Shown: in pieces, positions 18,096-54,066 of the stretch
Layout of the letters: the number at the start of each line of letters is the position of its first letter
Position numbering within the stretch: position 1 is the stretch's first letter
DNA from: Pirellulales bacterium
Lineage (GTDB): Bacteria > Planctomycetota > Planctomycetia > Pirellulales > S012-138
Direction: 5' to 3'
DNA: 64,000 nucleotides
Assembly: GCA_028066245.1 (NCBI GenBank)
Contig: JALCBR010000003.1
Span: 1-64,000 of the forward strand
The notes under the pieces: generated by a model
Seen by the model: only the letters and a program-made list of their open reading frames with translations
Told to the model about the DNA's origin: nothing
Databases searched by the model: none
Program-made: the position numbers and the translations under genes

Positions 18096-20816
18096 ATGGG
18101 AATGAAACGATTCCGGTGGGTTGGAATGAGTTGGCTCTTTGTGGTGTTGCTCAGCAGCCATGCACTGGCACAAGTGCAGGACCTGCCATGGCGCAACATC
18201 GGTCCCGCGAACATGGCGGGGCGCGTGATTGATGTCGAAGCGTTGAACGACGATTACCGCTTTGCGTTGATGGCGTCAGCCTCAGGCGGTGTCTGGCTGA
18301 CCAAGAATGCAGGCACCACCTGGACACCCATTTTTGAAAACTACGGCGTTGCGTCGATCGGCGACGTCGCAATCTGCCAGAGCGATCCCGACATCCTTTG
18401 GGTCGGTACGGGGGAAGCCAACAATCGAAATAGTGTCGCCTGGGGAGATGGAGTCTATAAATCGACCGACGGGGGCGAGACTTTTACCAACATGGGACTT
18501 AAAGATACCCATCAGATCGCCCGCATTCGTATCCATCCGGACAACCCAGACGTCGTCTACGTGGCGGCGGCGGGACATCTCTGGGGCTATAGCGGTCGGC
18601 GCGGTTTGTTTAAGACGACCGATGGAGGGAAAACTTGGAGCAAGCTGACCAACGGCTTGCCCAACCACAGCAAAATCGGAGCGAACGACCTTGTCATGGA
18701 TCCCAACGATCCAGACACGCTGTATCTGACCATGTACCAACGTCGCCGCACTTCGTTTCGATACGACGGCGGCAGCCGAGATGGAGGCATCTTCAAATCA
18801 ACCAATGGCGGCCGCTCATGGAAAAAACTGACCAGCGGACTCCCCACTGGTCCCATGGGACGCATCGGATTAGACATTTACGCCAAGAATCCCCAGATTC
18901 TCGTGGCGATTGTGGAAACCGAATTGGACCCCGATGATCCGTTGTACCCGGGAGTCTGGGGAACTGTGCGGGGAGCTGCCAATCGATCGCTGGAAAAACC
19001 GCAGTCGGGAATTTATCGCAGCGAAGACGGTGGAGAGTCGTGGTCGTACCTCAACACCTACAACAACCGCGCATTTTATTTTAGCAAAATTCGCATCAAC
19101 CCCAGTGACGACCAACGCGTCTACGTAATGACGCAGCGTTTTCAAATGTCTAGCGACGGGGGGCGTACACTCAGAGGTTCCGGCCGCGGAATCCACGGTG
19201 ACTACCACGCGATGTGGATCGATCCTCACAATCCGGATCGCTTCTACATCGGCAATGATGGTGGCCTTTCGCTGAGCCATGACCATGGCCGAACCTACAA
19301 CTTCTTTGACAATGTTTGCATTTGTCAATTTTATGCGATTGGTGCAGACATGCGGCAACCGTACTGGGTCTACGGCGGACTGCAAGACAATGGCACCTGG
19401 TCCGGACCCAGCAACAGTCGCGACAGCCGGGGTGTTTTGAACGACCACTGGTTTAGTGTCAGCGGTGGCGATGGCTTCTATGCTCAGATCGATCCTACCG
19501 ACTGGACAACCGTCTACTCAGAAAGCCAAGGCGGCAACATCGGACGCCGGAATGTGCGTACGCGCCAGTCGTCAGGAATTAAGCCCCGCCGCAACAATGT
19601 CATTAACTACGACGAAGTCGTGCCCGATCCGGCTCCCGATTACTACAGCCGGGGACCATTCCGTTTCAATTGGAATGCCCCCATCCATTTGTCGCCTCAC
19701 AACCCCCATACGGTCTACTTTGGCGGCAACTACCTGTTCAAGTCGGTGGATCGCGGTGATACCTGGAAGATCATCAGCCCTGATCTATCGACGAACAACT
19801 CCGAAAAGATGAAGCCTAGCGGCGGCATCAACCCTGACAATACGGCTGCCGAGTTCCACGGCACTGTTGTCACGATTTCCGAATCGCCGCTGACGCAAGG
19901 TGTTGTCTGGGTGGGCACAGACGATGGGAACGTCCAGGTGACGCGTGATGACGGAGTGACTTGGACCGACGTGACCAAAAATCTAGAAACCGTGCCTGCC
20001 GAGCTGTGGGTCAGTCGCGTCGAAGCTTCGCACTTCGATCCGGCAACTGCGTACGTATCGGTTGATGGCCACCGCAGCGATGATTTTACGCCGTATGTCC
20101 TCAAAACGACCGACTACGGTCAGACGTGGGAGCTGATATCGACTGATCTGCCCGCCGGACACAGCGTGTACGTCGTTCGGGAAGATGCCAAGAACCGAGA
20201 CCTCTTGTTTGTGGGTACGGAATTCAGCGTGTTCTATTCCCTGGATGGAGGTCAATCGTGGAATAGTTTGTTGAACAACATGCCCAATGTGGCGTTTCAC
20301 GATTTGTTGATCCACCCTCGCGACAATGATCTGATCGCTGGGACGCACGGTCGCGGCATTTGGATTATGGATAACATCACACCCCTGCAACAATTGACCG
20401 CCGCCGTGCGCCAACGGCCGGCGCATTTGTTTCAGCCACGGCCAGCGGTTAAATGGCTTTCGATCAGCAGAGGCGGATCGCGAGGCCAGCAATTTTTTTC
20501 TGGTGACAATCCGTCTCAAGGCGCTGTGATCGACTACTATCTCGCCGAGGAGGTTGCAGGGGAAGTTCGCCTAGAGATATCGAATGTGACCGGCGATCGG
20601 CGCTTCCGTACGGAAGTACCGGCAACCGCGGGACTTCATCGATTCCGCTGGGATTTCCAGCTCAATCGAACCGGCCGTGGCCAGCAAGGGCGTGGTCGGC
20701 AGCGCAGAAGTACGGCGGGCGCGGGGCAGTACCGCGTGACGTTAACTGTTGGCGACCAGCAATTCACGCGCCAACTCGTCGTTGAGGATGACCCGATGTT
20801 GACCGACAATCAGTGA
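18096..20816 (+). CDS. Secreted VPS10/BNR-type beta-propeller protein 1
   Basis: Secreted 906-residue protein with a Sec signal peptide (residues 1-26, ending SHALAQ) and a long series of BNR/Asp-box repeats of the sortilin-VPS10 type. Repeated units have the form VYKSTDGGETF, LFKTTDGGKTW, IFKSTNGGRSW and VTRDDGVTWTD. It also has the conserved NIGPANMAGRV and ASASGGVWLTKNAGTTW start. Such proteins are glycosidase-like propellers but usually lack a proven activity. The C-terminal region (about residues 865-885) is Arg/Gly/Gln-rich. It is paralogous to the propeller at 31386-33758 and separated from it by the glycan operon. Confidence 0.88.
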   Translation: MGMKRFRWVGMSWLFVVLLSSHALAQVQDLPWRNIGPANMAGRVIDVEALNDDYRFALMASASGGVWLTKNAGTTWTPIFENYGVASIGDVAICQSDPDILWVGTGEANNRNSVAWGDGVYKSTDGGETFTNMGLKDTHQIARIRIHPDNPDVVYVAAAGHLWGYSGRRGLFKTTDGGKTWSKLTNGLPNHSKIGANDLVMDPNDPDTLYLTMYQRRRTSFRYDGGSRDGGIFKSTNGGRSWKKLTSGLPTGPMGRIGLDIYAKNPQILVAIVETELDPDDPLYPGVWGTVRGAANRSLEKPQSGIYRSEDGGESWSYLNTYNNRAFYFSKIRINPSDDQRVYVMTQRFQMSSDGGRTLRGSGRGIHGDYHAMWIDPHNPDRFYIGNDGGLSLSHDHGRTYNFFDNVCICQFYAIGADMRQPYWVYGGLQDNGTWSGPSNSRDSRGVLNDHWFSVSGGDGFYAQIDPTDWTTVYSESQGGNIGRRNVRTRQSSGIKPRRNNVINYDEVVPDPAPDYYSRGPFRFNWNAPIHLSPHNPHTVYFGGNYLFKSVDRGDTWKIISPDLSTNNSEKMKPSGGINPDNTAAEFHGTVVTISESPLTQGVVWVGTDDGNVQVTRDDGVTWTDVTKNLETVPAELWVSRVEASHFDPATAYVSVDGHRSDDFTPYVLKTTDYGQTWELISTDLPAGHSVYVVREDAKNRDLLFVGTEFSVFYSLDGGQSWNSLLNNMPNVAFHDLLIHPRDNDLIAGTHGRGIWIMDNITPLQQLTAAVRQRPAHLFQPRPAVKWLSISRGGSRGQQFFSGDNPSQGAVIDYYLAEEVAGEVRLEISNVTGDRRFRTEVPATAGLHRFRWDFQLNRTGRGQQGRGRQRRSTAGAGQYRVTLTVGDQQFTRQLVVEDDPMLTDNQ

Positions 20817-20859: not shown

Positions 20860-20903
20860 CGCTCTGGTGCACCTGAGACAGCATTCTCAGGTGTGCCAGA
20901 GCG
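20860..20903. terminator. Bidirectional terminator
   Basis: Near-perfect stem: 19-base arms (20860-20878 and 20885-20903, two G-U pairs) around a 6-base loop, followed on the plus strand by ATTTTTCTT. It lies between propeller 1 and the convergent glycosyltransferase, so it can end both transcripts. Confidence 0.9.
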
Positions 20904-20911
20904 ATTTTTCT

Positions 20912-22288
20912 TTACCCGCTTTGCCGACTGGCGTTCAGCGATGGCTCATTGTCCAGGCAGGCCATCACCGTTTGGAACAGTGACCGCAATGTACAACGAT
21001 CAGCAACACATTCGTGCATCCAACGGGCAATCTCCTGACGCTCTTCGGGCCGCGTCAGGAAGTGATCAATCTTCTGGTTGAGTTCCTCAACGTTGTCATA
21101 GAGGATTTGATTGATGTCGGTTCCAAACAATCGCACGAGATCAGCTTTGCGATCACAAAGCGCGAACCCCCCTGCGGCAACGCAATCAATGAACTTGGAG
21201 GGCGTGCCTTCATGGATCAGCCCGTTGCTGACGCACACGTTGATCTGAGAACCCGCGTATACCTTCGGCAACTCGTCAAAATGGTGTGCTTCCCCGGCGA
21301 ATTTGAGATTGGGGTACCGTGCCAGCAACTCCCGGCTGTCCGGATCCGCGAACAGGCCGTATAGGCTGACTTCGTGATTGATTCCACCCAACACAGCAAG
21401 CCGAGCAAGTGAATTGATGGCCGATGCGGACATCAATCGATAGAGATCAAAGAACTCCGAGAATTTCATTGGCTCGGCGTTGCGCATTGCCTTGACCAAA
21501 AGTTTCCAGGTTGGTCGGTGCAATTGTTTTGTCTTGACGGCGCAGATATCTTCAATCAACCGGCGTGACTCTTCGGCTTGGTATCGAGCGTCCGCTTCCA
21601 GCAGTTTGAGATAGATATTGCCTACAAAGCTCACGTCAGCGGTGAGTGGTTTTTCCTCGCCAGATGCGCCGACGTCCAGGAAAGCACTGTATGTTGCCAC
21701 GGGATGCCAACACACCCGGCCGGCATCGAGAATTCCCAACTCATCCAGAACGGTCACCTGTCCACTATCCCAGGCGATGTGCCGCATGTTGCGATGGCTC
21801 ATCAGCTCTTTGAACCACGGCGGCGGTGAGGGAGCTCCAGCCGCGTGACTTTCGGCGCCTTCGGTCAACTTCACGTATCGCTTGAAGTCACGGCGCGCGC
21901 GGAACTTTCCGGCAAGCCCCCGTGGATAGACACGTTCCCGGTTGCCGCCCCATCCATTCGGCTTGGGTTCAAAAAACGTCGTCACTGCCCAGAGCGGATC
22001 ATCCCATAGACAAATTAACGGAATGTCTTGTTCCAACAAATCCGGCAGGTCAACCAACGCCAGCAACAGGTAGTTGAAATTAGCGGAGAGCATTGCGTCC
22101 GGCCTGGCAGCCCGAATCTGGCTCATCACACTGCGGGGCTCGGCGGTGACGTCTGAAAGGCGCACGACCATGACATCAATGTCAAGCGCTTCAAGCGTGT
22201 TCACCATCTCCTGCAATCGGAGCAGCATCAGCGTTTCCCACGGACCGGAAAACCCGTCATTGCAGAAGAAGACAAAACGGCGTTTCAT
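20912..22288 (-). CDS. Glycosyltransferase, CgeB-like
   Basis: A 458-residue cytoplasmic glycosyltransferase of the CgeB/GT1_2 kind, expected to move a sugar onto a glycan. It starts FVFFCNDGFSGPWETLMLLR, and the C-terminal half has the donor-binding pattern (HEGTPSKFIDCVAAGGFALC, then NVEELNQKIDHFL). The start at 22288 is chosen for its GGAAAG; another ATG lies at 22327. It is the last gene of the minus-strand glycan operon, ending 9 bases from the bidirectional terminator. Donor and acceptor are unknown. Confidence 0.78.
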   Translation of the reverse strand: MKRRFVFFCNDGFSGPWETLMLLRLQEMVNTLEALDIDVMVVRLSDVTAEPRSVMSQIRAARPDAMLSANFNYLLLALVDLPDLLEQDIPLICLWDDPLWAVTTFFEPKPNGWGGNRERVYPRGLAGKFRARRDFKRYVKLTEGAESHAAGAPSPPPWFKELMSHRNMRHIAWDSGQVTVLDELGILDAGRVCWHPVATYSAFLDVGASGEEKPLTADVSFVGNIYLKLLEADARYQAEESRRLIEDICAVKTKQLHRPTWKLLVKAMRNAEPMKFSEFFDLYRLMSASAINSLARLAVLGGINHEVSLYGLFADPDSRELLARYPNLKFAGEAHHFDELPKVYAGSQINVCVSNGLIHEGTPSKFIDCVAAGGFALCDRKADLVRLFGTDINQILYDNVEELNQKIDHFLTRPEERQEIARWMHECVADRCTLRSLFQTVMACLDNEPSLNASRQSG

Positions 22289-22354
22289 GGGAACTTTCCG
22301 GGGCAGTGGATGTTCGTTGTCCCCCATTTGAGCCGGATTCAGTCTAGCGCTAGG

Positions 22355-23509
22355 CTAGGCGGCTTGGCGACTTCCATGATGGAGCGCATCCTTTAGCGCT
22401 TGGACAACCTGGTCTACGTCTGCGAATTCCATCCGCGGATAGAACGGCAGCGAAATCGCCTGTCCTCCGATCCTCTCGGCGTGAGGAAACTCGCCGCCGA
22501 CAAATCCAAATCGCCGTTTGAAATACGTCAGCAAGTGAATGGCGCGGTAGTTCACAGTCACGCCAATACCATTGGCTTGTAGGTCTTGCAGTAGTTCATC
22601 CCGGCGCGCCTCCGAAACCCAAATTGTTTGCAAGTGGTGGGCATGTTTTACTTCCGGCAGATCAGCCGGGCCGGAGATACCATCAAGCTCGCGGAGGTGT
22701 TCCCGATAATAGTCCGCTAATTTTTGACGGCGTTCCCAATTCTCATCCAGGCGCGCTAACTGTGGGCGCAGCAGAGCAGCCTGCAAGTTATCCATGTTGT
22801 ACTTCCAGCCGAAGTCCACCATGTCCCAATGCGTGTAGCCTTCGCGAGCGCGGTCGGCGGCGTTCTTAGTCATTCCGTGGAGTCGCAAGGGACGCAAGCG
22901 ATTGGCCAGCTCTTGATCATTCGTGGCAATGGCTCCGCCTTCTCCGCAAGTCAAGTTCTTGGTTGCATAGAAAGAGAAGCAAACCGTCTCAGCCAGATCA
23001 CCGGGGCGCACGCCGGCACGGCTTCCTTCCACGCAATGCGCCGCATCTTCGATCAGCTTGACGTCATGTTGATTGGCCAATGCGCGTAATTCTTGCATGT
23101 CGCACATCTGCCCGTAGAGGTGAACCGGGATGATGGCTTTAGTCCGAGGCGTGATTGCCTTAGCTACTTGCTCAACATCCAAATTACCCGTTTCCGGCTC
23201 GACATCCGCAAACACAGGCGTGGCCCCTGCTTGGATGACGGCCGTTGCGGTGGCGATAAAGGTCAACGGCGTGGTGATCACTTCATCGCCTGGGCCGATC
23301 CCCAGCGCTTCAAGCGAGAGTTGCAACGCGGCCGTGCAACTGGTCACAGCAACGACATGCTTGCGGCCCAGGTAGCTCGCCAGTTCGCGCTCGAAGGCGG
23401 CGACGGTTTCGCCGGTCGTCAGGATCGGATCAGCCAGTGCCTGCGTGATCGCCTGCACTTCGGCCGGCCCAAGATCATGTTGATAGAACGGGATGGATCG
23501 CTGATTCAT
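22355..23509 (-). CDS. DegT/DnrJ/EryC1/StrS sugar aminotransferase
   Basis: PLP aminotransferase of 384 residues acting on a keto nucleotide sugar. The PLP lysine lies in SFYATKNLTCGEGGAIAT, with the preceding IEDAAHCVEG acid and the start motif IPFYQHDLGPAEVQAI. The ATG at 23509 is chosen because the conserved N-terminus begins there. The gene is 49 bases downstream of the dehydratase, which would supply its substrate, and upstream of the glycosyltransferase. The product is probably a 4-amino-4,6-dideoxy or 3-amino sugar; which one is not visible. Confidence 0.93.
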   Translation of the reverse strand: MNQRSIPFYQHDLGPAEVQAITQALADPILTTGETVAAFERELASYLGRKHVVAVTSCTAALQLSLEALGIGPGDEVITTPLTFIATATAVIQAGATPVFADVEPETGNLDVEQVAKAITPRTKAIIPVHLYGQMCDMQELRALANQHDVKLIEDAAHCVEGSRAGVRPGDLAETVCFSFYATKNLTCGEGGAIATNDQELANRLRPLRLHGMTKNAADRAREGYTHWDMVDFGWKYNMDNLQAALLRPQLARLDENWERRQKLADYYREHLRELDGISGPADLPEVKHAHHLQTIWVSEARRDELLQDLQANGIGVTVNYRAIHLLTYFKRRFGFVGGEFPHAERIGGQAISLPFYPRMEFADVDQVVQALKDALHHGSRQAA

Positions 23510-23558
23510 GGTCCCCAACTGTCGTTTCGAACGGTCCATCATTTGCCGTGCAGCGACG

Positions 23559-24593
23559 TCAAGCCGCCCTCCGCTGTGCGGGACGCTCCTGCGGAGCGGG
23601 CGTATCTCGCGTCCAGAGTTGGTGCTGCCAGCGAGCAGGGTTGGCCACGTACCAATCGATGGTCATTTGCAATGCATCCGCGAACGATGTCGGCGGATCC
23701 CAGTCGATCAGTTGTTCCGCTTTTGCGCAATCCGCCGTGTGGCGGAAAACCTGACCAGGGCGATCACCAACGCACTGAATCAAGCTCTTGGGTTTGCCCA
23801 TAGCATCCAAGACTGCATGAGCAATCTCCAATACGGAGAGATGCGATTGGGCTCCCAGGTTGATCGCTTCACCAGCAATCTTATTGATGTCGCAATGCAA
23901 GATTCTGTCCAACCCTTCACAGGTGTCAGCAACAAACGTGAAATCGCGCATGGCTTCGCCCTGGCCGTGGACCGGCAATGGTTCTCCGGAAAGCGCGTTG
24001 GTGATGAATCGCGGAATAACTTTCTCAATGTGCTGCTTGGGTCCAAATTGATTGAACGGACGAATAATCACCGCGGGAAGGCCATAGGTGCACCAGTACG
24101 AGTACACCAGTCGATCTGCGCCAGCTTTGGCACTGGCGTACGGGCTCATCGGCAACAGGGGGTGCTCTTCATCCATGCGAACCGACTCCGCCGTTCCATA
24201 GACTTCGGACGTGGAGATATGAATGAATCGCTCGACGGTGTCGCGGTGCTTCAGAATGGCGTTGGCGATCACTTGTGTTCCGAGCACGTCAGTCTGGAAG
24301 AACTGGTAGTTGTCATAGATGGAGCGCGTGACATGAGTCTCAGCGGCAAAGTGCACAATCATGTCAGCGCGTTCAACCAGGCTCTCGACCATGGCGGCAT
24401 TGCAGACATTGCCGTACCAGAATTCCAGCCGGCCTCCACTTTCGCGATAATCGACCGGCAGGTTCTCCACGTTGCCTGCGTACGTCAGCGTATCCAGTAC
24501 CAGCAAGCGGTAGTCGGGATACTTCGTGTAGAGATGATCGACAAAATTGCTGCCGATGAAGCCTGCACCGCCGGTAATGAGAAGCGTTTTCAT
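23559..24593 (-). CDS. NAD-dependent sugar 4,6-dehydratase/epimerase
   Basis: Extended SDR of 344 residues acting on a nucleotide sugar. It has the dinucleotide motif TGGAGFIGSN and YASAK as the YxxxK pair. The active-site segment reads ISTSEVYGTAE instead of STDEVYG of RmlB. This pattern, and the following SPYASAK and RPFNQFGP, recall LegB-type 4,6-dehydratases and UDP-glucuronate decarboxylases, so the exact reaction is uncertain. The ATG at 24593 overlaps the wbqC-like stop by four bases (ATGA), so the genes are coupled. Confidence 0.87.
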   Translation of the reverse strand: MKTLLITGGAGFIGSNFVDHLYTKYPDYRLLVLDTLTYAGNVENLPVDYRESGGRLEFWYGNVCNAAMVESLVERADMIVHFAAETHVTRSIYDNYQFFQTDVLGTQVIANAILKHRDTVERFIHISTSEVYGTAESVRMDEEHPLLPMSPYASAKAGADRLVYSYWCTYGLPAVIIRPFNQFGPKQHIEKVIPRFITNALSGEPLPVHGQGEAMRDFTFVADTCEGLDRILHCDINKIAGEAINLGAQSHLSVLEIAHAVLDAMGKPKSLIQCVGDRPGQVFRHTADCAKAEQLIDWDPPTSFADALQMTIDWYVANPARWQHQLWTRDTPAPQERPAQRRAA

Positions 24594-25288
24594 GAACAGA
24601 GAATCTCCAGGCTGCGTGGTCCACAATTCAGCAACAAGTCGATGATCGACAAATGAGACGCAAACTCGCCGTGCGGCTGCTGATAGGTTGGGTGTTGGTA
24701 GTCTTGGTATTCCAATGTGATGTCGTGCTGGTCAAAAACGCGCTGATCGATGTAATCTCTCCCCGCAGCTCCTTCAAAGAAGTGGTTGGCTCCAATCTCT
24801 CGGCAGATGTTGACCAACCGTTCCGTGGCTCGCCCTTCAACCTGCAACTCGGAAGAGAAGAGAATTGTTCTTTCCAACCCCAGCCGCTTGAGGATCTCCC
24901 GCAGGGCGAAGACGTTCAGGTCCAGCAGAAAGTCCCAATCTTGATCGTAAATCTTGTGAAGCAGATCTTCATGCTCGGCAAAGTAAGCTGCCTTGGCATA
25001 GCTTTGTTGGATTGAGGAAACGTGCTTGCGCGCCCAATTGCGCGAGTTCTCTACCCGAACGTCACGAATGGTTGTTCCCAAGGTGGCTTTGACGGGCACG
25101 GTCAGCCACTTAATTCCGGCTGCTGTCTTGATCCGATTCCGATTTCGCCACGAGTTCTTATCAAACTGCGCATCGTCGTACAAGACGAAGGTGTCCGCGC
25201 GATGGATCTGCGCAATGTAGCCCAGCCAAGGTAGAAAGCTTGGTTGCAGGATCCCGGCAACATGTGCCTTGCTATCAACCGCAGCCAT
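24590..25288 (-). CDS. WbqC family protein
   Basis: A 232-residue member of the WbqC-like family, found in polysaccharide gene clusters, biochemical role not settled. Recognisable segments are ILQPSFLPWLGYIAQIHRAD, FVLYDDAQFDKNSWRNRNRI and the C-terminal HPTYQQPHGEFASHLSIIDL. It sits between asnB and the dehydratase, separated from asnB by 115 bases and overlapping the dehydratase by four. The neighbourhood suggests a role in sugar acyl or amide decoration. Confidence 0.85.
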   Translation of the reverse strand: MAAVDSKAHVAGILQPSFLPWLGYIAQIHRADTFVLYDDAQFDKNSWRNRNRIKTAAGIKWLTVPVKATLGTTIRDVRVENSRNWARKHVSSIQQSYAKAAYFAEHEDLLHKIYDQDWDFLLDLNVFALREILKRLGLERTILFSSELQVEGRATERLVNICREIGANHFFEGAAGRDYIDQRVFDQHDITLEYQDYQHPTYQQPHGEFASHLSIIDLLLNCGPRSLEILCS

Positions 25289-25403
25289 GAGCGTTTTCTC
25301 TCTGAGGAGCTATACAAAGGAATTTTCCAAATAGCGGTTTGGCCGATGACTGTCGTTTTCAATGCGAAATCACTGCTAGCATGCCGCGGAAGTTTAAACG
25401 GAT

Positions 25404-27269
25404 TTAGGCGGCCAGCCGCGCGGAGCGGAACTGCCGATGCCAGGCTTGGAAGTGCAGCAGTGCAAGCACTTGGTTGGCCTTCTGCGTTTGCCCGGCATGG
25501 AACTCGTTGAGCAGTTCCGTCACGTAGACAGGATTGAAAAGCCCGTGTTCGGCCAAGCGGTTGGGGTGCAACTCGGCACGCGTGAATTCTCTCAGTGCTG
25601 ATGTCAACCAATTGTTGATTGGCAGAACGAATCCCTCTTTGGGACGAAACACCATCTCACGCGGCAGGTACCGCGCCGCCGCCTGCTTGAGGAGATACTT
25701 GGTTTCCCCGTTGCGGATCTTCCAACAATCGGGCAGCCGTGCGACAAACTCAACCAGCTTTGTATCCAGGAAGGCGCTGCGGACCTCCAGTGAATGCGCC
25801 ATCGACAGTCGGTCGACGAAGGTCAACACTTGATCCGGAAGCAACGTCCGGAACTCAACACCCAGGATCCGGTTGAGCGGTCCTCCGCCGGCGTGCATCT
25901 CAAAATCGCGACGGAGCCAGCCTGCTGTGCTCGTTCCCTCCAGGGCCGTACGGATTTCGTTCGAATACAGGGCTCGTTTTTCTTCTTCGGAAAACACGAA
26001 CAGCTTTGAACGCCACTCCCAATCTTCTTCTGCGGCCAGGCGCTTGAGAAATGGAACCTGGTCCTGGAACGGACGGATGAGATCCTTGTTCTTGGTGCGC
26101 CGATACTCCTCCCAATTGGCCAACGGTTGGGCCAGGCGGTGCGTCAGGTAGCTTCCAAACAACTCATCAGCGCCATCGCCTGCCAGCGCGACTTTGACGT
26201 GCTGGCTGATTAATTCCGCCAGGAAATACGTGGAAACGACACCGGAAAACGGCTCATCGAACGCCGCAGCGATTGCGGGCAGCCGTTGTGGAAAATCATC
26301 GAAGCTGAGTGCCAACTCGTGATGCTCGGTCTTGTAGCGCTCAGAGACCCATCGGGCCCAATAGCTGTCTGTTTGTTTGTTCTCGGTTGAACTGTCCGCT
26401 TGGTATCCCAAGGTAAATGTCTTGATCGCCTGGGAGGATAGTTCCGCAGCCAGCACGGTGGACAGTGCTGAGTCCACGCCACCGCTTAGGAAGAACCCAA
26501 TCGGTACGTCAGCTCTCAACCTGCGCCTGACACCATCCCGCAGCAGTGACAACAACTCATCAACGAGTTCTTCTTCGGCCGCATCTTCCATCGCCAAATC
26601 CGGCTCGAACGATAGCTCCCAGTACCGTTCAATCCGCAATGGTCGCCCCGGACGATAGATCAACCGGTGCGCTGGCGGTAGTATCCGGATGCCTTCAAAG
26701 ATAGACAGGGGATGTGGAACGTGTTTCAAGCTCAAGTAGTGGTGCAAGGCTTGAAGGTTGATCCGCGGGGAGAATCCTGGAATCATCAACAGCGCTTTGA
26801 TCTCGCTGGCAAAGTAGAGTGAATCGCCTTGCTGGACATAGTACAGCGGTTTCTTGCCCATCCGATCACGGGCTAGCAAGCCAATTCTGGCTTGTTCATC
26901 CCACACCGCCACGGCAAACATTCCGTCGATCTCGCTGACCAAGTCCGTGCCGTGTTCTTCCCACAGGTGCGGCAGCACCTCTGTGTCACACTTTGTCAAC
27001 AGCCGATGCCCTTGAGCGAGCAGGTCCGCTCGAACGTCTTGGTAGTTGTAGAGTTCTCCGTTTTGCGCAGCCCAGATGGTTTCGTACTCGTTGGCGACTG
27101 GTTGGCGGCCATGTTCAACATCCAGAATGGAGAGCCGCCGTGCACCCAGCGTGAAGTGCAAACCGGCAATGACTTGCCCGTCATCCGGACCGCGATGCAC
27201 AAGCCGGGACAACATGGCTTCGGCGGTCGGCCGGTCAGGGCGTCCAAAGACTCCGCAAATTCCACACAT
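25404..27269 (-). CDS. asnB: Asparagine synthase (glutamine-hydrolysing) type amidotransferase
   Basis: A 621-residue enzyme with an N-terminal glutaminase domain (nucleophile Cys2 in MCGICGVFG, RGPDDG, NGELYNY) and a synthetase domain with the PP-loop SGGVDSALS and the GDGADELFGSY motif. It uses glutamine and ATP to amidate a carboxylate. In glycan clusters such proteins often amidate a uronic acid or an acyl group instead of aspartate; that is inferred from location here. It starts two bases after the stop of the membrane protein gene. Confidence 0.92.
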   Translation of the reverse strand: MCGICGVFGRPDRPTAEAMLSRLVHRGPDDGQVIAGLHFTLGARRLSILDVEHGRQPVANEYETIWAAQNGELYNYQDVRADLLAQGHRLLTKCDTEVLPHLWEEHGTDLVSEIDGMFAVAVWDEQARIGLLARDRMGKKPLYYVQQGDSLYFASEIKALLMIPGFSPRINLQALHHYLSLKHVPHPLSIFEGIRILPPAHRLIYRPGRPLRIERYWELSFEPDLAMEDAAEEELVDELLSLLRDGVRRRLRADVPIGFFLSGGVDSALSTVLAAELSSQAIKTFTLGYQADSSTENKQTDSYWARWVSERYKTEHHELALSFDDFPQRLPAIAAAFDEPFSGVVSTYFLAELISQHVKVALAGDGADELFGSYLTHRLAQPLANWEEYRRTKNKDLIRPFQDQVPFLKRLAAEEDWEWRSKLFVFSEEEKRALYSNEIRTALEGTSTAGWLRRDFEMHAGGGPLNRILGVEFRTLLPDQVLTFVDRLSMAHSLEVRSAFLDTKLVEFVARLPDCWKIRNGETKYLLKQAAARYLPREMVFRPKEGFVLPINNWLTSALREFTRAELHPNRLAEHGLFNPVYVTELLNEFHAGQTQKANQVLALLHFQAWHRQFRSARLAA

Positions 27270-27271
27270 GG

Positions 27272-28855
27272 TCAGCCTCCCTTGGCGACGTAGGAGCCAT
27301 GACCCGCTGCCTCGAACACGACCGAGCGCGGCGCTGGGATCGCGCGCTGAGCGCCAAGCGAGCGTTCACTCACCGTTCCAGTTTTGACGTCGACGATATG
27401 CTCTGACTCTGTCAGGAAACGCAACGAGTGCTTGGCCTTTTCCATGTGGACGTATTGAAACACCAGTTGCTCATCATCGGAGTGTGGCAACGTGGCCGCA
27501 TACGTCAGCAGTTTCTGCTCAAAGACCTCAGGCCGGCTGGCAAAGTAGCGTCGTGACGTGAAGATGCAGGTCAGCGTGATCGATTCCACCACGTGGCGAA
27601 AACGGGGCACGCGAGTTTGATAGTCATTGATCACTCGTCGATGAGCCGGCGGTTGGACGAACATGGTTTCGGCAACCTGCGTCCTCTCATCGCGGCGCAA
27701 CGATCGATCGCTATCTTCTTTGTTAGCCTTCTGCAATCGCTGAAGTCCTGGTTGTTCTCCTGAGCGTTGCCCGCGAGGTTCCGCATAGATTCGCAAAAAG
27801 AACCGCGTGTGGTCCGCAGAGAACACACGCCAGATGATGATGCCCAGGGCGTTGGTGTACGCCGCGAGTGCTGACTGGATCAGGCGTGGCAGCGGGCGTT
27901 TCGTGAGGAAGTTGAAGAACAGACCAGCATGTGCCAATGGCAGCAACACGAGGTACGTAGCTAAGACCGTCGCTGAGAGCCACGTCAACCAGGTCGTCCC
28001 GGTCTCGGCGATGACCGCGGTTTGGGTGAACGTCATCGGCGTGATCGCAGCCAGCGCGTACCCTCCCCAGCTCTCCGCCGTAAAGAAGAACAGGCAGCAG
28101 GCGATCACGATTCCGCAGAGCGTACCGAGGCGAATTTGCGCCCAAACGTAAACAAAGCTCAGCAGAATCATGAGGCCACCCCAAAACCGTAAACCGGGGA
28201 TCAGCATCATTACCGCTCCAATCACTTCCACGGACCAGCCGAGATGATTGGCCGTGCGGAGAAAAATGTGATTGGGTTTCACGCAGGCAAAGAAGTTTGG
28301 CCAGTAACTCCAGGCGGGATTGGCCATCCCGTAGTTCATGCCTTCGTTATGGGCATACCCGGCAATGGCTTTGTAGGTGCCGGCGGAAAGCATGATGAAA
28401 GCGAAATCCGCCTGCACCGCCAGAATGGCCAATGACCGAGCGGCGGGCGCGTAGTGACTGGTAAACTCGACGAGGAAAACACTGATCCCCATCCACCAGG
28501 TCATGAAGCCCGGCGCGCCAAACCCCCGGTGCAGTCCACTCCAGCGCATGGCCACAAAGAAGTACCAGCAAAATGCGGCATTGAGCGCCGCAGCCGGCAC
28601 CGTCCATTGTCCCAGCGTCAAAAGCACGGCCGAACACAGCCATGCAGTCATAACAATCGGCAACACGACCGGGTTCTGTACGGCCAAGACTTTCTTGGTT
28701 GTCGCGCCGTATCCGCCAAATCGGCTAGTGAGGAACAGTCTGCGCCAGTGCGGCAAGAAAAACAGCAGCGTCCCCGTCAGCAGCAGTCCGTACGCAATCC
28801 GAATCACGGCTTGCGTTGACGGCAGCAATTCCGGACTGAGGAACGCCTCAAGCAT
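27272..28855 (-). CDS. Multi-pass membrane protein, HTTM-like (tentative)
   Basis: A 527-residue membrane protein with about ten hydrophobic helices in residues 10-340 and a soluble C-terminal domain of about 180 residues. The spread of paired helices and the R-rich loop after helix 1 (HWRRLFLTSRFGGYG) recall HTTM/vitamin K-dependent carboxylase-like proteins. The similarity is only suggestive, so I leave the function open. The ATG at 28855 overlaps the GNAT gene by eight bases. A membrane step in the assembly or modification of the cluster's glycan would fit the position. Confidence 0.55.
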   Translation of the reverse strand: MLEAFLSPELLPSTQAVIRIAYGLLLTGTLLFFLPHWRRLFLTSRFGGYGATTKKVLAVQNPVVLPIVMTAWLCSAVLLTLGQWTVPAAALNAAFCWYFFVAMRWSGLHRGFGAPGFMTWWMGISVFLVEFTSHYAPAARSLAILAVQADFAFIMLSAGTYKAIAGYAHNEGMNYGMANPAWSYWPNFFACVKPNHIFLRTANHLGWSVEVIGAVMMLIPGLRFWGGLMILLSFVYVWAQIRLGTLCGIVIACCLFFFTAESWGGYALAAITPMTFTQTAVIAETGTTWLTWLSATVLATYLVLLPLAHAGLFFNFLTKRPLPRLIQSALAAYTNALGIIIWRVFSADHTRFFLRIYAEPRGQRSGEQPGLQRLQKANKEDSDRSLRRDERTQVAETMFVQPPAHRRVINDYQTRVPRFRHVVESITLTCIFTSRRYFASRPEVFEQKLLTYAATLPHSDDEQLVFQYVHMEKAKHSLRFLTESEHIVDVKTGTVSERSLGAQRAIPAPRSVVFEAAGHGSYVAKGG

Positions 28856-29441
28856 GATGGCTCGCTGTGTCGTGTAACTGCCGTCGAACATGTGCCGAGG
28901 GCACATTGTTCACGCGCGCTTCCCGTAGCAATCCCAACATGGTCACGTCGACGTAGCGCTCGCCGGACCATCGGTCATTCTTCAGCAACCCTTCTTGCTG
29001 GAAGCCCGCGTTTTCAAATGCGCGCACAGCTCTGGCGTTGCTGGCGAGCACGAGCGCAAAAACTTTGTGTAGGTTCAAGCGTTCAAAGGCATACTTGCTG
29101 ATGAGCGATAACGCTTGCGTGCCGAGACCCTGGCTGCGAACGCTGTCATGGCCGACGACAATCCGCACTTCGCATTTGCGGTGACGAGGATCAATGTCCC
29201 ACAACCAAACGTTGCCCACGTGGGAGGGCGTATCGTCTTCGGCTTGTATCTCAATGGCAAAGTACACGCGGTCCGTTTTGCCGTGCAGCGTGGCGAACCA
29301 ATGCTCGTGGGCCGCGTCCGAGACAGGCGTGGCGCGGTCCATCAGCTCCGCAATCTCCCAGTCATTCGCCCAGCGGCGCGTCGCTTCCAGGTGCCGTCGA
29401 TCCAGCGGCACGAGCGACACGCTTGGTCCGTGCATGATCAT
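28848..29441 (-). CDS. GNAT N-acetyltransferase (RimJ/RimL-like)
   Basis: A 197-residue GNAT fold protein. The acetyl-CoA loop is visible as HDSVRSQGLGTQALSL, followed by YAFERLNLHKVFALVLASN and ARAVRAFENAGFQQEG. In a sugar cluster it probably acylates the amino group installed by the DegT aminotransferase. It overlaps the radical SAM gene by four bases (ATGA) and the membrane protein by eight, so all three are one transcriptional unit. Confidence 0.9.
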   Translation of the reverse strand: MIMHGPSVSLVPLDRRHLEATRRWANDWEIAELMDRATPVSDAAHEHWFATLHGKTDRVYFAIEIQAEDDTPSHVGNVWLWDIDPRHRKCEVRIVVGHDSVRSQGLGTQALSLISKYAFERLNLHKVFALVLASNARAVRAFENAGFQQEGLLKNDRWSGERYVDVTMLGLLREARVNNVPSAHVRRQLHDTASHHA

Positions 29442-30550
29442 GACGCTTTCCTTTGCGGTGGTTGATAGATTTCCACATCAACACCGAGATCGTCCTGCAT
29501 GATCTTGCGTACGTGATCTCCGGATGTCTTCAGCACTTTAAGCCAGCCATGTTCCCAATCGCGGATGCCGGCAAACCATGCACTACAGCCACGGCAAGGG
29601 GAACACTCCGCTCCTCGCCCGTTCAGGTGCATTCGCCGATACCAGTTGAAGGCTTCTCCCTGCCAGATTTCTTTGATTGGAACGTCGTTGGCATTGGGAA
29701 ACTGATTGGCTGTGGAGAAGGAAATATCCTGCCCACACAATGCGATGCGGCCGAGGGTATCGACGTTCAATCGCTCGAACGGCCACACGCAAGGTTCCTT
29801 CTTCTCAGTCGGATGGTCGGCATACAGATGCCGGTCCAACGACTTCTCTAATGAAATCGATGTGTTGTCGTCCCAGCTGAGAAACTTGCGTGTGATCACG
29901 TCGTCAACACCAACATCTTTCAGCCAGTAATCGATGGCTTGATCCAGCTTGCCTTCGATGATGTCCTGGCGAATGATCGAAACGACAACGCGTGTACCGA
30001 TTCTCATTTCTTCCCGCATTTGCAAGGCGGCACGGACATTCCCCACCATGCGTTCCCACCAGGCGTTCGGGTCTGCAGGGGGCCCACCTCGTGGCGGACG
30101 CACTGTGGCATAGGTCTCTGCGTCGCCCGCGTCCATGGAGAACTCAATCAGATCAATACCAGCTTTGATCAGGCGGCGCAGCTTGTTCCTGTGCGGTGCG
30201 GACGAACCGAACATGCTGCCGTTGGTGTTTAGCCAAACCCGCGCCCCTTGCGACTTGGCGAACTCGATCATGTCCACCATTCGCGGATGGAGCATTGGTT
30301 CTCCGCCGCCTGTGCAACGCATCCACGATCCGTACTCGCCGCACTCTTTGGCGATGGAGTTCCACAACGGTTCAGGGAACAACTCCCCCTCGCGCTCGCG
30401 ATAAAAGGTGCGTATCTCCGAATTCCCATCCGTGTAAGGGCAATTCGGACAGCCAAAATTGCACGGATAGATGATCGAAAGCACGACCATCAATGGAAAT
30501 TCTTCCCCACCGGTCCGTGCAACGGCACTGGTTCCGTTTGTCGCGTCCAT
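29438..30550 (-). CDS. Radical SAM protein with SPASM-like cluster
   Basis: A 370-residue radical SAM enzyme. The Fe-S motif is CNFGCPNCPY (near residue 30), followed by GGGEPMLHP. The C-terminal Cys groups (CVWPFERLNVDTLGRIALC and CSPCRGC) form a SPASM-type extension binding extra clusters. Such enzymes modify peptides, sugars or other small molecules by H-atom abstraction. The gene is the first of the glycan operon, preceded by an 835-base gap, and overlaps the GNAT gene. The chemical step is not assignable. Confidence 0.88.
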   Translation of the reverse strand: MDATNGTSAVARTGGEEFPLMVVLSIIYPCNFGCPNCPYTDGNSEIRTFYREREGELFPEPLWNSIAKECGEYGSWMRCTGGGEPMLHPRMVDMIEFAKSQGARVWLNTNGSMFGSSAPHRNKLRRLIKAGIDLIEFSMDAGDAETYATVRPPRGGPPADPNAWWERMVGNVRAALQMREEMRIGTRVVVSIIRQDIIEGKLDQAIDYWLKDVGVDDVITRKFLSWDDNTSISLEKSLDRHLYADHPTEKKEPCVWPFERLNVDTLGRIALCGQDISFSTANQFPNANDVPIKEIWQGEAFNWYRRMHLNGRGAECSPCRGCSAWFAGIRDWEHGWLKVLKTSGDHVRKIMQDDLGVDVEIYQPPQRKAS

Positions 30551-31385
30551 GCAACAATCGTCCTAAGCTGGCGAGTCAAGATATCGAGCTAGCGCCATCC
30601 CATCCGTGGCGTGGCTTTACCGTCTCTGCTCTTGCTGGCATCTGGCGTGCCAGCGGAATTCTAGTCGGAGCAGGCCATCCCCCCAACGCCAATTTGATAG
30701 CAACTCACGATGCTAGCGATGACGGTGTTATATCAGTCTTTTGTGAGAGAGCTGACCGATTGCACGCTTTGGTCCAGAGCACCTGTCCGATGGCTGTTCC
30801 GCTCGCCTGAGGGGACGCTGTCATGTCATCCCGTGATGGGAGCCACGCGCATGCGAGCATGGCGCGGGGAACGCTGCGGCAATTCAATCACGCGTTCGCG
30901 AAGGGATGGGGTTGGCGACGGAACGTCAACAAGAAACGCTCTAGGTCCGCATCGGCTGGAATTGCCTGGGCGTACATGCAATCTGGCAAGAGGTCAACGG
31001 TCTGCTCATGCTTGCCGTGAGGGGATTTTTACTTGCGCCCGGCGTCATTTTTGCGTAACTACGGTATTTGCTTGAAGTTGGCGTTCCAGGCACTTAGCAT
31101 ATTGGCGCTGGGCATAGTAGTGCTGGCATTGTGAGTTTGCGTCGCCCGTCGTAGCGAGAATCGATTCCCACGGCGCGCTCCACCAGTGCACTACGCGGTC
31201 CTTGCTTGGTGATCGAAATGGGGCCGGGTTCAGGCCACGATGAGTTCCCGCTCACGCCGCTTGTGGCTTGCCTGAAAGATGACATTTCCCTCTTGCTGCG
31301 CGGTTCGTCGCTTCAAGACTCATTTCTTCATCTAGCACCAAAAATCACCGGTAATCAAAGATCATCCCTTGAGGAGTTGAGCACC
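30551..31385. other. Long intergenic region between glycan operon and propeller 2
   Basis: Region of 835 bases between the divergent radical SAM gene and propeller 2. Only short frames without recognisable domains occur. A hairpin of the form TGGCATCTGGCGTGCCA lies near 30638-30654. It should hold promoters for both directions; none stands out. Confidence 0.5.
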
Positions 31386-33758
31386 ATGCGCCTTCGCATC
31401 CTCGCTCATTGTTCGCTTACTACGTCAGCTTGCCTCGCGGTCATTCTGCTCATGGCCAGTGCGGTGGCTCACGCTCAAGTCAGAGAGCCGGTCACCGATC
31501 CTAGCGATCGACTGGCCCTCCACGCGCAGCACCTGAAGATGCGGGACAGCACGCCCTATCAACAGGACTGGCGATTCATTGGCCCGCAGATCATGAGCGG
31601 TCGGATCACAGACTTGGCCGTTCCCAATGGGCAGCCATACACCATTTATGTCGCCTCCGCATCGGGCGGCGTTTGGAAGACAGTCAACGAGGGCACGACT
31701 TGGAAACCCATCTTTGATGATGCCCCTTCGGCTTCAGTGGGTGCCATCGCCTGTGCTCCCTCGGCACCGGACACCGTTTGGGTTGGTCTGGGCGAGTCGA
31801 ACATCTTTCGCAGCAGCATGTCGGGAACGGGTGTGTACAAGTCCACCGACGCCGGTGCCACTTGGCAACATATGGGCCTGGCAGACTCGCATCACATCGC
31901 GCGAATCGTCATTCATCCGGAAAACCCGGATGTGGTGCTGGTTGCCGCCTGCGGTCACGAATGGACGAACAATGAAGAGCGAGGCGTCTTCAAGACAACA
32001 GACGGAGGCGCTACCTGGGACCGCGTGCTGTACATGAATGAAAGCACCGCGGCGATTGATTTGGTGATGTCCCCGGATGACCCCCAGGTCTTGTATGCCA
32101 GCATGTGGGACCGCATTCGCTTGAAGTGGAGCGATCCGCTGCCAGGCGAGAAAGACGGTATCTATAAATCGATCGACGGTGGCGACACCTGGACCGAACT
32201 GACCGAAGGGCTCCCTGCGCCGGCCGACCGCGGCAGGACGGGCATCGCCATCGCGGCGTCAAACCCTAATGTTGTCTATGCGTTGATTGACAACCATGAG
32301 GTGGCGCGCAAAGCTCGCGCATCCGAGCGCGATGCCTACGGCAATCGCCGCGCGGACATCAAATTTGGTGCGGAAGTCTATCGTTCTGACGATGCCGGAC
32401 AAACCTGGGTCAAAACGCATCAAGGCACGGAGTTGCGGCGGCTGTTCTCAACCTACGGCTGGGTGTTCTGCCAGATTCGGGTGGATCCCAATGATGAAGA
32501 CACCATCTACGTGATGGGCGTTCCGTTGATGCGGTCACGTGATGGCGGAAAAACCTTTGAAGGGATTCGTTATTCCGGCCTGCATAGCGATCATCACGCG
32601 ATGTGGATTGATCCAGCAAACTCCAACCATATCCTCAACGGAAATGACGGCGGCTTGAACATTTCCTATGACGGCGGTGAGACCTGGAAGAACGTTCAAG
32701 ACCTGCCGCTGGTGCAGTTCTATAACGTCGCCTATGACATGTCCCAGCCTTTCAATGTCTTCGGATCTATTCAAGACAATGGAAGCTGGATGGGCTCTGT
32801 CATGCACAACCCGGCGCGTGATCCGCTTACGGATTGGAAGTCAGCTCCTGGCGGGGAAGCCAGCTACCATGCTGTGGACCCAACGGACAACAACGTGCTC
32901 TACAGCGAAGGTTTCTACGGAAGCATCCAACGAGCGACTTTAAGACCTCGCACGACCACCAACATTCGCCCGCGCGAGCCTGCCGGCGAACCGCCGTACC
33001 GCGGTCAGTGGTTGGCGCCATTCATCATCTCGCCGCACAACCCTTACGTGATTTACCACGGAATGAACAAAGTGTTCCGGTCCGTGGACCGCGGTGATAC
33101 GTGGGAGACGATCAGCCCTGACTTGTCTCACAATGATCCGAAGAAACAAGGCAACATTTCTTTCCAGACCATCACTTCACTATCAGAGTCTCCGTTGAAG
33201 TTTGGCGTTCTCTATGCCGGAACGGATGATGGCCGCGTGTGGGGAACACAAGATGGCGGACTGAATTGGAATGAGTTGACCACAGGCACGTCTGAACGCT
33301 CTTGGGTGTCCCGCGTCGCCGCAAGTCGTTTTGATCCGGGGACTGTTTACTTGGCCAAGAACGGACGGCGTGACAGCGATTTCCAAGCTTATCTCTATGT
33401 TTCTGAAGACTACGGAAACACCTGGAAGGATATCGCAGCCAATTTGCCTGGTGGTCCCATCAACGTCATCACTGTGGACCCAAGAAGTGAGGACGTCCTG
33501 TACGTCGGCACGGACTTGGGCGTTTATGTCTCCAACAATCGGGGCGAGAGTTGGAACGTGTTGGGCTCCGAGTTGCCGCTCACATTCGTTCACGACTTGG
33601 TCGTTCATCCGCGGGATGATATCGTCGTCATCGCGACGCACGGACGCGGCATGTTTGCACTGGAGTTGGAGGAACTCCGTGGCACCTTGGGCGGGCAGCC
33701 GTCGAATCGTGGAGGCCAGCCAACAAGACGCGGCCGGCGGAGAGGAGGTGGCCGCTAA
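31386..33758 (+). CDS. Secreted VPS10/BNR-type beta-propeller protein 2
   Basis: A 790-residue secreted paralogue of the propeller at 18096. The signal peptide (LTTSACLAVILLMASAVAHA) and the FIGPQIMSGRI and SASGGVWKTVNEGTTW segments parallel propeller 1. BNR boxes include VYKSTDAGATW, VFKTTDGGATW, IYKSIDGGDTW and LYVSEDYGNTW. The ATG at 31386 has AGGAG eleven bases upstream; the frame opens at 31206 but the extra 60 residues do not look like a leader. The C-terminus is Arg/Gly-rich (NRGGQPTRRGRRRGGGR). Activity unknown. Confidence 0.88.
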   Translation: MRLRILAHCSLTTSACLAVILLMASAVAHAQVREPVTDPSDRLALHAQHLKMRDSTPYQQDWRFIGPQIMSGRITDLAVPNGQPYTIYVASASGGVWKTVNEGTTWKPIFDDAPSASVGAIACAPSAPDTVWVGLGESNIFRSSMSGTGVYKSTDAGATWQHMGLADSHHIARIVIHPENPDVVLVAACGHEWTNNEERGVFKTTDGGATWDRVLYMNESTAAIDLVMSPDDPQVLYASMWDRIRLKWSDPLPGEKDGIYKSIDGGDTWTELTEGLPAPADRGRTGIAIAASNPNVVYALIDNHEVARKARASERDAYGNRRADIKFGAEVYRSDDAGQTWVKTHQGTELRRLFSTYGWVFCQIRVDPNDEDTIYVMGVPLMRSRDGGKTFEGIRYSGLHSDHHAMWIDPANSNHILNGNDGGLNISYDGGETWKNVQDLPLVQFYNVAYDMSQPFNVFGSIQDNGSWMGSVMHNPARDPLTDWKSAPGGEASYHAVDPTDNNVLYSEGFYGSIQRATLRPRTTTNIRPREPAGEPPYRGQWLAPFIISPHNPYVIYHGMNKVFRSVDRGDTWETISPDLSHNDPKKQGNISFQTITSLSESPLKFGVLYAGTDDGRVWGTQDGGLNWNELTTGTSERSWVSRVAASRFDPGTVYLAKNGRRDSDFQAYLYVSEDYGNTWKDIAANLPGGPINVITVDPRSEDVLYVGTDLGVYVSNNRGESWNVLGSELPLTFVHDLVVHPRDDIVVIATHGRGMFALELEELRGTLGGQPSNRGGQPTRRGRRRGGGR

Positions 33759-33930
33759 CTCTCGCAGGTGTATGTCAACAAACATCTGAAATTTGCTGAC
33801 AATTGGATCACCGCATCGTGTTGAAGCTGGAGCGGCAGCGGCGGCAACACAGATCACAAGACCTCACTGCCACACAAGATTGTTTCAATTCATCCCATTG
33901 TCTCTTCTCGTGAATAACGGGGGGTTCCTT

Positions 33931-53615: not shown

Positions 53616-54066
53616 GCGGTCGCTGCGGGTGACGTCTGTGGCCATGCGTCTGACGTAGTGCCGGCATCGACGATGCGCATGCGTGGTCCGTCCAATTGGC
53701 ATCATCGTCGCCATCGACACAATCATTAGCACTGCCAAGATTTACGCTATCAAAGAAGTCAACCATGCTAGCTGGTCGGACATGTCGCTAGCACCTGTTC
53801 GACTTTAACAAAACTGGAAAATTTCTTCTCCAGTTGTGGTATGGGTTTGCGTCGTCTGCGCGCGGAATTGTAATTCTTACTGATTTGCCAATGGGCGAGT
53901 TGCGTGGAATGTTTCCTACGCAGGCTCTTGCTGCGCGCGCAATCCGTATGGAAATGGTCCCGCAGCCTCAGCCTGATCTTCGACTGGCGATTTTGAGTCT
54001 TGTTCGCAGCGCGGCTGACGTTTCGTAAACACGCGATGTCTGTTAGCGCATTTTTTGGGGGAAACC
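53616..54066. other. Intergenic region before the YTV protein gene
   Basis: Region of 451 bases. It holds an inverted repeat AACTGGA (53812-53818) with TCCAGTT (53829-53835), and two copies of the GCTAGC hexamer near 53770 and 53789. A weak 64-residue frame (53834-54028) is not supported as a gene. Confidence 0.45.

What the first reader, a model, noticed from the sequence alone, without database searches (positions are those of the whole stretch)
20912..30550. Eight-gene glycan-modification operon with a radical SAM/SPASM enzyme
The genes run in one direction with overlaps or small gaps (most within 66 bases, the largest 115) and end at a strong terminator. They combine a nucleotide-sugar dehydratase-like SDR, an aminotransferase, a GNAT, AsnB, a WbqC protein, a membrane protein and a glycosyltransferase. 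A radical SAM/SPASM enzyme at the start is unusual for plain sugar clusters and suggests an extra C-C, C-S or H-abstraction step.
Basis: partly seen in the sequence, partly recalled or inferred. Interest (0 to 1): 0.65.

Follow-up and report, generated by a model that had tools for sequence, protein, structure and literature searches.

The report
Radical-SAM amino-sugar operon with carboxylase-like membrane protein
Eight co-directed genes that probably build an unusual amino sugar for the cell surface; most of the set recurs, rarely and patchily, in distant bacterial phyla, and its unannotated membrane protein proves to resemble the vitamin K-dependent carboxylase of animals.

Summary
The eight genes are real, co-directed and almost contiguous. 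One detail is wrong: the "strong terminator" has its T-run on the other strand and serves the convergent neighbour. (1) The radical SAM protein belongs to a tight subfamily, 66-76% identical overall to proteins from Planctomycetota, Acidobacteriota, Melainabacteria and Vulcanimicrobiota (54% in one Prochlorococcus), yet rare in every group sampled. (2) In ten loci, the window included, it lies with a partial or full set of the same genes. (3) The "membrane protein" has no Pfam hit, but its predicted fold matches the vitamin K-dependent gamma-carboxylase GGCX. Profile comparison with the HTTM family agrees (probability 95, E 3e-8; reversed controls below 1). GGCX's catalytic Lys218 is kept (K179, invariant in 19 of 19); its His160 is not. 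In five loci a DCC1-like thiol-disulfide oxidoreductase, a domain fused to HTTM elsewhere in this genome, lies beside it. The radical SAM enzyme is nearest in structure to BtrN, BlsE and DesII and keeps four auxiliary-cluster cysteines. Best reading: a 4-amino-4,6-dideoxyhexose pathway with one radical step and a quinone/thiol-linked membrane step. The exact product is unknown.

The parts
29438..30550 (-). Radical SAM enzyme (370 aa): CxxxCxxC at 30-37 and a one-cluster SPASM/twitch domain (C254, C272, C319, C322)
   Evidence: Pfam PF04055 and PF13186; invariant Cys in 18 aligned sequences; profile hits BtrN and BlsE; Foldseek BtrN, BlsE, DesII
28848..29441 (-). GNAT N-acetyltransferase, PseH-like
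   Evidence: PF13302 E 1e-20; TIGR03585 PseH 79 bits, below its cut-off of 93
27272..28906 (-). Membrane protein (544 aa), divergent HTTM / vitamin K-dependent gamma-carboxylase fold; invariant K179 and motif RGxGAPG (a later start near 28855 is possible)
   Evidence: No Pfam/NCBIfam hit; AF2 model; Foldseek top 16 all GGCX; hhalign to HTTM prob 95 with reversed controls 0.5-0.6
25404..27269 (-). AsnB-type glutamine amidotransferase / asparagine synthase, catalytic Cys2 and SGGVDS intact
   Evidence: PF00733, PF13537; motif check
24590..25288 (-). WbqC-family protein
   Evidence: PF08889 E 1e-80; the only one in this genome; no solved-structure relative
23559..24626 (-). Nucleotide-sugar 4,6-dehydratase-like SDR (probable start 24593): GGAGFIG, STSEVYG, YASAK
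   Evidence: PF16363, PF01370; TIGR01181 314 bits, cut-off 365; motif check; dTDP-glucose 4,6-dehydratase structures
22355..23542 (-). DegT/DnrJ-type PLP sugar aminotransferase (SFYATK)
   Evidence: PF01041 E 9e-124; PseC/ArnB/perosamine synthase-like
20912..22327 (-). Glycosyltransferase of the Glyco_trans_1_2 (CgeB-type) family; no relative found in the other clusters
   Evidence: PF13524 E 2e-13; no BLASTP hit in the related loci
20860..20903 (+). Intrinsic terminator of the convergent + strand gene 18096-20816; not a U-tract terminator for the operon
   Evidence: Terminator scan and sequence

Best explanation
A patchily distributed, probably horizontally spread pathway that makes and attaches an unusual nucleotide-activated amino sugar for a surface glycan. 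Proposed order: the SDR turns an NDP-hexose into the 4-keto-6-deoxy sugar; the DegT enzyme puts an amino group on C4; the GNAT acylates it; AsnB, with WbqC, adds a further amide group. The radical SAM/twitch enzyme performs one radical step on a ring or side-chain carbon (oxidation, deamination, epimerisation or decarboxylation, in the manner of BtrN, DesII or BlsE). The membrane protein, with a carboxylase-like fold and in several lineages a DCC1-like thiol oxidoreductase beside it, performs a quinone- or thiol-linked step at the membrane. The glycosyltransferase transfers the sugar. Shown: gene identities, intact motifs, the recurring set, the predicted fold and the conserved lysine. Inferred: the substrate, the order, and the reactions of the radical SAM, WbqC, AsnB and membrane proteins.
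For: Families and motifs. The set recurs in Planctomycetota, Acidobacteriota, Melainabacteria and Prochlorococcus although both key genes are rare: the membrane protein was found in none of the 57 other related genomes searched; close radical SAM hits occur in 3 of 392 genomes of the phylum, 1 of 277 in the phylum of G448 and 1 of 41 in the genus of the Prochlorococcus locus. In the 392-genome sample the membrane protein occurs in just 2 genomes, both among those 3; chance probability about 4e-5 (my calculation). Membrane protein: GGCX fold, HTTM profile match with clean reversed controls, invariant lysine in the GGCX Lys218 position, DCC1-like neighbours and HTTM-DCC fusions, one in this genome. 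Radical SAM: BtrN, BlsE, DesII; DesII acts on TDP-4-amino-4,6-dideoxyglucose (PMC11434129). More distant radical SAM relatives also sit beside DegT with WbqC or AsnB.
Against: No biochemical data, and no substrate can be read from the sequence. Radical SAM proteins about 70% identical occur outside sugar clusters in several genomes, so the gene is not bound to this pathway. In the order of G447 the pairing with the membrane protein is loose: both in 5 genomes, radical SAM alone in 4, membrane protein alone in 1, of 15. NCBIfam scores for dehydratase, aminotransferase and acetyltransferase are all below the curated cut-offs. The membrane model is of middling confidence (pLDDT 70), Foldseek TM is only about 0.43, and hhalign to the four canonical VKGC-type sequences alone is weak (probability 3 with A2; 41 with A5).
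Confidence: 0.55

Rival explanations
1. The radical SAM enzyme and the HTTM-like membrane protein form an independent functional unit (for example modification of a lipid, quinone or protein) that has been captured into glycan clusters in some lineages; the sugar genes are its neighbours, not its pathway.
For: In Vulcanimicrobiota-type genomes both proteins are encoded apart from each other and from recognisable sugar genes; one such genome (G446) has three copies of the membrane protein; the radical SAM protein is much better conserved than its sugar partners.
Against: Four genomes of that order have the radical SAM gene and no membrane protein, one the reverse. More distant radical SAM relatives again lie beside DegT, WbqC or AsnB, which ties the enzyme to amino-sugar clusters. 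I could not search those genomes for unlinked sugar genes.
Confidence: 0.2
2. An ordinary O-antigen or exopolysaccharide cluster in which the radical SAM and membrane genes do nothing beyond variants of known reactions (for example epimerisation or dehydrogenation, and O-acylation or transfer of a lipid-linked sugar).
For: Most families are standard polysaccharide genes; the glycosyltransferase has no relative in the other clusters; Lawsonia and Solidesulfovibrio plasmids carry loosely similar cassettes.
Against: The membrane protein does not look like a known transferase, flippase or polymerase, and its GGCX-type fold with a conserved lysine suggests redox or base chemistry.
Confidence: 0.2
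3. A small-molecule (secondary metabolite) pathway that uses a deoxyamino sugar rather than a surface polymer.
For: BtrN, BlsE and DesII all come from antibiotic pathways (established knowledge; structural hits); the operon holds a single glycosyltransferase and no recognisable flippase or polymerase.
Against: No scaffold gene (polyketide, peptide or other) was seen among the ORFs of the window; L009 places the radical SAM gene beside exporter and heptose genes that read as O-antigen type; WbqC is typical of O-antigen loci (general knowledge).
Confidence: 0.05

Closest known systems
DesIV-DesI-DesII (TDP-desosamine) route: 4,6-dehydratase, PLP aminotransferase, radical SAM deaminase
   Same: Same three enzyme types in the same logical order; DesII is among the three best structural matches of the radical SAM protein and acts on TDP-4-amino-4,6-dideoxyglucose (PMC11434129)
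   Different: DesII is longer and only distantly related (16-18% identity in the Foldseek alignments); here a one-cluster twitch domain is present; AsnB, WbqC, GNAT and an HTTM-like protein are added
BtrN and BlsE (twitch/SPASM radical SAM enzymes on aminocyclitol and sugar nucleoside)
   Same: Best profile and structural matches
   Different: 14-19% structural identity; BlsE family model scores 29 bits against a cut-off of 400; different gene context
Vitamin K-dependent gamma-glutamyl carboxylase (GGCX) and bacterial HTTM (PF05090) proteins
   Same: Predicted fold, HTTM profile match, invariant lysine at the Lys218 position, DCC1-like partner in several loci
   Different: No Pfam HTTM or lumenal-domain match; the position of catalytic His160 is Pro132 or a gap in the alignments; own RGxGAPG motif and a C-terminal extension
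PseB-PseC-PseH (pseudaminic acid) and viosamine-type routes
   Same: Dehydratase, DegT aminotransferase and PseH-like acetyltransferase
   Different: PseC and PseH models are below cut-off (349 of 423.5; 79 of 93.1); the SDR is RmlB/LegB-like, PseB scoring only 46 of 408; no sialic-acid-type synthase in the operon
Lawsonia and Solidesulfovibrio plasmid cassettes (DegT + radical SAM + WbqC or AsnB)
   Same: Same combination of families around a distantly related radical SAM protein (23-27% identity)
   Different: No HTTM-like protein or 4,6-dehydratase annotated in the stretches shown; additional methyltransferases

Membership tests
HTTM / vitamin K-dependent carboxylase (PF05090) | Match to the curated HTTM model | tested here: not met
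   No hit for any of 10 members at E <= 1, nor for the window protein at E <= 10
HTTM / vitamin K-dependent carboxylase (PF05090) | HTTM/GGCX fold | tested here: met
   Foldseek top 16 PDB hits all GGCX, probability 0.98-1.0, best E 5e-6, but TM about 0.43 and model pLDDT 70; hhalign to 12 HTTM proteins prob 95, E 3e-8, reversed controls 0.5-0.6
HTTM / vitamin K-dependent carboxylase (PF05090) | Lysine that deprotonates vitamin K hydroquinone (GGCX Lys218) | tested here: met
   K179, invariant in 19 sequences, aligned with the AGxxK lysine of HTTM proteins and, through L047, GGCX Lys218; role of Lys218 from PMC9146348
HTTM / vitamin K-dependent carboxylase (PF05090) | His160 (essential in GGCX) | tested here: not met
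   Aligned with P132 in two profile alignments, with a gap in the third
HTTM / vitamin K-dependent carboxylase (PF05090) | VKGC lumenal domain (PF22777) | tested here: not met
   No hit; present in the bacterial VKGC-type proteins L046 and L047
Radical SAM with SPASM/twitch domain | CxxxCxxC [4Fe-4S]-SAM motif | tested here: met
   C30, C34, C37 invariant in 18 sequences
Radical SAM with SPASM/twitch domain | Auxiliary cluster ligands | tested here: met
   PF13186 over cut-off; C254, C272, C319, C322 invariant, enough for one cluster, not two
BtrN, BlsE or DesII proper | Family-level sequence match | tested here: not met
   BlsE model 29 of 400 bits; only profile- or structure-level similarity
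dTDP-glucose 4,6-dehydratase (TIGR01181) | Score over curated cut-off | tested here: not met
   314 of 365 bits; STSEVYG in place of the Thr-Asp-Glu recalled for RmlB
PseC / PseH (pseudaminic acid) | Score over curated cut-off | tested here: not met
   349 of 423.5 and 79 of 93.1 bits
Surface-glycan biosynthesis operon | Glycan product made by these genes | not testable with these tools
   Needs mutants and glycan analysis

The most novel reading that the evidence does not exclude
The membrane protein uses a reduced quinone (vitamin K-type) and its conserved lysine, with DCC thiol chemistry to recycle it, to activate or carboxylate a lipid-linked amino sugar that the radical SAM enzyme has oxidised, and AsnB turns the new carboxylate into an amide. 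This would be vitamin K-carboxylase-type chemistry on a carbohydrate, a kind of glycan modification I know no example of.
Probability: 0.08. Interest if true: 0.85.

Novelty: new variant of a known kind. Interest (0 to 1): 0.5.

Why it matters
It defines a recognisable, patchily distributed amino-sugar cassette found in several phyla, with two enzymes whose chemistry is unassigned: a strongly conserved sugar-cluster radical SAM/twitch enzyme and a divergent relative of the vitamin K-dependent carboxylase that current family libraries miss. If the carboxylase-like protein works on glycans, the chemistry of that fold would extend beyond the protein carboxylation for which GGCX is known. The profile made here allows both to be found elsewhere and tested.

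Tried and rejected
Phage or plasmid carriage of this radical SAM subfamily: no match in phages, only 23-28% relatives on plasmids, nothing in viral contigs for its peptide patterns. Strict co-inheritance of radical SAM and membrane protein: rejected by the 15 genomes of the order of G447. Direct pattern search of genome contigs with the membrane protein found nothing, because its sequence diverges; the radical SAM query found the clusters. Orthology to the canonical bacterial VKGC-type proteins alone: weak (probability 3; 41), and His160 is missing. An empty insertion site could not be shown: only one of four same-family genomes has a relative of the flanking VPS10-like gene, without informative synteny. 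Literature: no paper in the library describes WbqC function or this gene set; the one promising hit concerned the hopanoid enzyme HpnH. The radical SAM tree neither proves nor excludes particular transfers: few branches are firm.

Full report
OBSERVATION. The eight genes exist at the stated places, all on the minus strand, with small gaps or overlaps. Pfam confirms radical SAM + SPASM, GNAT, AsnB, WbqC, dehydratase-type SDR, DegT aminotransferase and a Glyco_trans_1_2 glycosyltransferase; the 544-residue membrane protein has no hit. Catalytic motifs are intact: CxxxCxxC; AsnB Cys2 and SGGVDS; SDR GGAGFIG/STSEVYG/YASAK; DegT SFYATK. The terminator claim is wrong in direction: the 19-pair hairpin at 20860-20903 has its T-run on the + strand and serves the convergent gene 18096-20816.

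DISTRIBUTION. A membrane-protein search of 58 closely related genomes found only the window itself. In 392 genomes drawn from the phylum, radical SAM hits at E <= 1e-30 occur in four: the window's genome, G138 and G078 (47-48% identity in the tool's rows) and G381 (32%). In 277 genomes of the phylum of G448 there is one; in 41 of the genus of the Prochlorococcus locus, one. Yet proteins 66-76% identical overall come from a Planctomycetaceae MAG, Acidobacteriota, Melainabacteria and Eremiobacterota/Vulcanimicrobiota MAGs, and 54% from a Prochlorococcus single cell. The protein tree does not separate phyla cleanly but has few firm branches. Horizontal spread is the simplest reading; it is inferred, not proven.

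THE SET. Within those loci the same genes recur: L007 rSAM-GNAT-MEM-AsnB-WbqC-DegT; L008 DegT-rSAM-GNAT-MEM-AsnB-WbqC-SDR; L019 DegT-rSAM-MEM-AsnB-WbqC-SDR with GNAT reversed; L020 (Prochlorococcus) rSAM-MEM-AsnB-WbqC-SDR-DegT; also L010, L011, L014, and, partly cut by contig ends or rearranged, L016 and L018. The window makes ten. The window's glycosyltransferase has no relative in them. More distant radical SAM relatives (23-32%, or 44-45% for L004 and L005) also lie beside DegT, WbqC, AsnB or SDR (L005, L006, and plasmids of Solidesulfovibrio and Lawsonia); L004 is in one frame with a formyltransferase-like domain by its sequence.

THE MEMBRANE PROTEIN. An AlphaFold2 model from ten orthologues (pLDDT 70, pTM 0.72; transmembrane blocks about 85-94) matches GGCX in all of the first 16 PDB hits (best E 4.7e-6, probability 1.0, TM about 0.43). 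Independently, the profile of 19 orthologues matches the profile of 12 HTTM proteins (probability 95, E 3e-8), while either profile reversed gives 0.5-0.6. Against only four VKGC-type sequences the match is weak (probability 41 with the deeper profile) but in the same register. [quoted passage not shown] The His160 position holds P132 or a gap. A DCC1-like oxidoreductase (PF04134) lies beside the membrane gene in L008, L011, L016, L018 and L034, and upstream of the radical SAM gene in L020; L034 belongs to the same genome as L009. HTTM-DCC fusions occur in this genome (L069) and in a relative (L065). So it is a divergent, partly re-tooled member of the HTTM fold, not a gamma-carboxylase by test.

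THE RADICAL SAM ENZYME. Profile search finds BtrN and BlsE first; structure search finds BtrN, BlsE and DesII (model pLDDT 77). Four auxiliary cysteines are invariant, enough for one extra cluster. DesII acts on TDP-4-amino-4,6-dideoxyglucose (PMC11434129), the type of product expected from an SDR + DegT pair; this is an analogy, not proof.

LINKAGE. In the 392-genome sample the membrane protein occurs in two genomes, both of which carry the close radical SAM gene. Of 17 genomes reached through radical SAM loci, all but one (G078, 80% complete) carry the membrane protein somewhere. But in 15 genomes of the order of G447 the pairing is loose (5 both, 4 radical SAM only, 1 membrane protein only), and in that order the radical SAM gene stands among non-sugar genes. 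I therefore do not claim an obligate pair.

VERDICT. A surface amino-sugar operon is the best reading (0.55). The product, the radical reaction and the function of the membrane protein are unknown. It is a new variant of a known kind, with moderate interest because of the carboxylase-like membrane protein and the strong conservation of the radical SAM enzyme across phyla.

Noticed in passing
18096-20816 and 31206-33758: Two paralogous VPS10/sortilin-like beta-propeller proteins (+ strand) flank the operon on either side, as if the operon had been inserted between tandem copies.
   Followed up: partly
L012 9511-9861, L013 9549-9899, L015 9570-9899, L021 9555-9899, L017 9421-9816: In Vulcanimicrobiota-type genomes the stand-alone radical SAM gene is preceded by a divergent short gene for a small protein with a hydrophobic N-terminal part and no Pfam hit (two tested).
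   Followed up: partly
L004 1435-3558 (-): Radical SAM domain in one frame with an N-terminal formyltransferase-like domain (methionyl-tRNA/sugar formyltransferase type by eye), which hints at a formylated amino sugar.
   Followed up: no
L069 1-2451 (-) (G000:C108): The same genome encodes an 817-residue HTTM-DCC1 fusion protein, and another HTTM protein on C48 (L054).
   Followed up: partly
7716-9185: TatC-like protein of 489 residues with a long soluble insert after the first transmembrane segment, by eye.
   Followed up: no
33793-37023: Prolyl-oligopeptidase-like protein with long repeated Arg/Gln/Gly (RGQTQRGRQQ) and Asp/Glu/Lys-rich inserts.
   Followed up: no
54055-55398: Protein built of repeated Tyr/Val/Arg-rich motifs (YTVxRPVWET, VPVQTCRMV).
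   Followed up: no
L018 5769-7676, 11089-13008, 18150-20039: Three similar proteins around the Melainabacteria cluster; the two tested are glycosyltransferase-TPR proteins.
   Followed up: partly
L088 and L085: The membrane-protein match in G447 and G774 is reported with one in-frame TGA: frameshift, sequencing error or decay.
   Followed up: no
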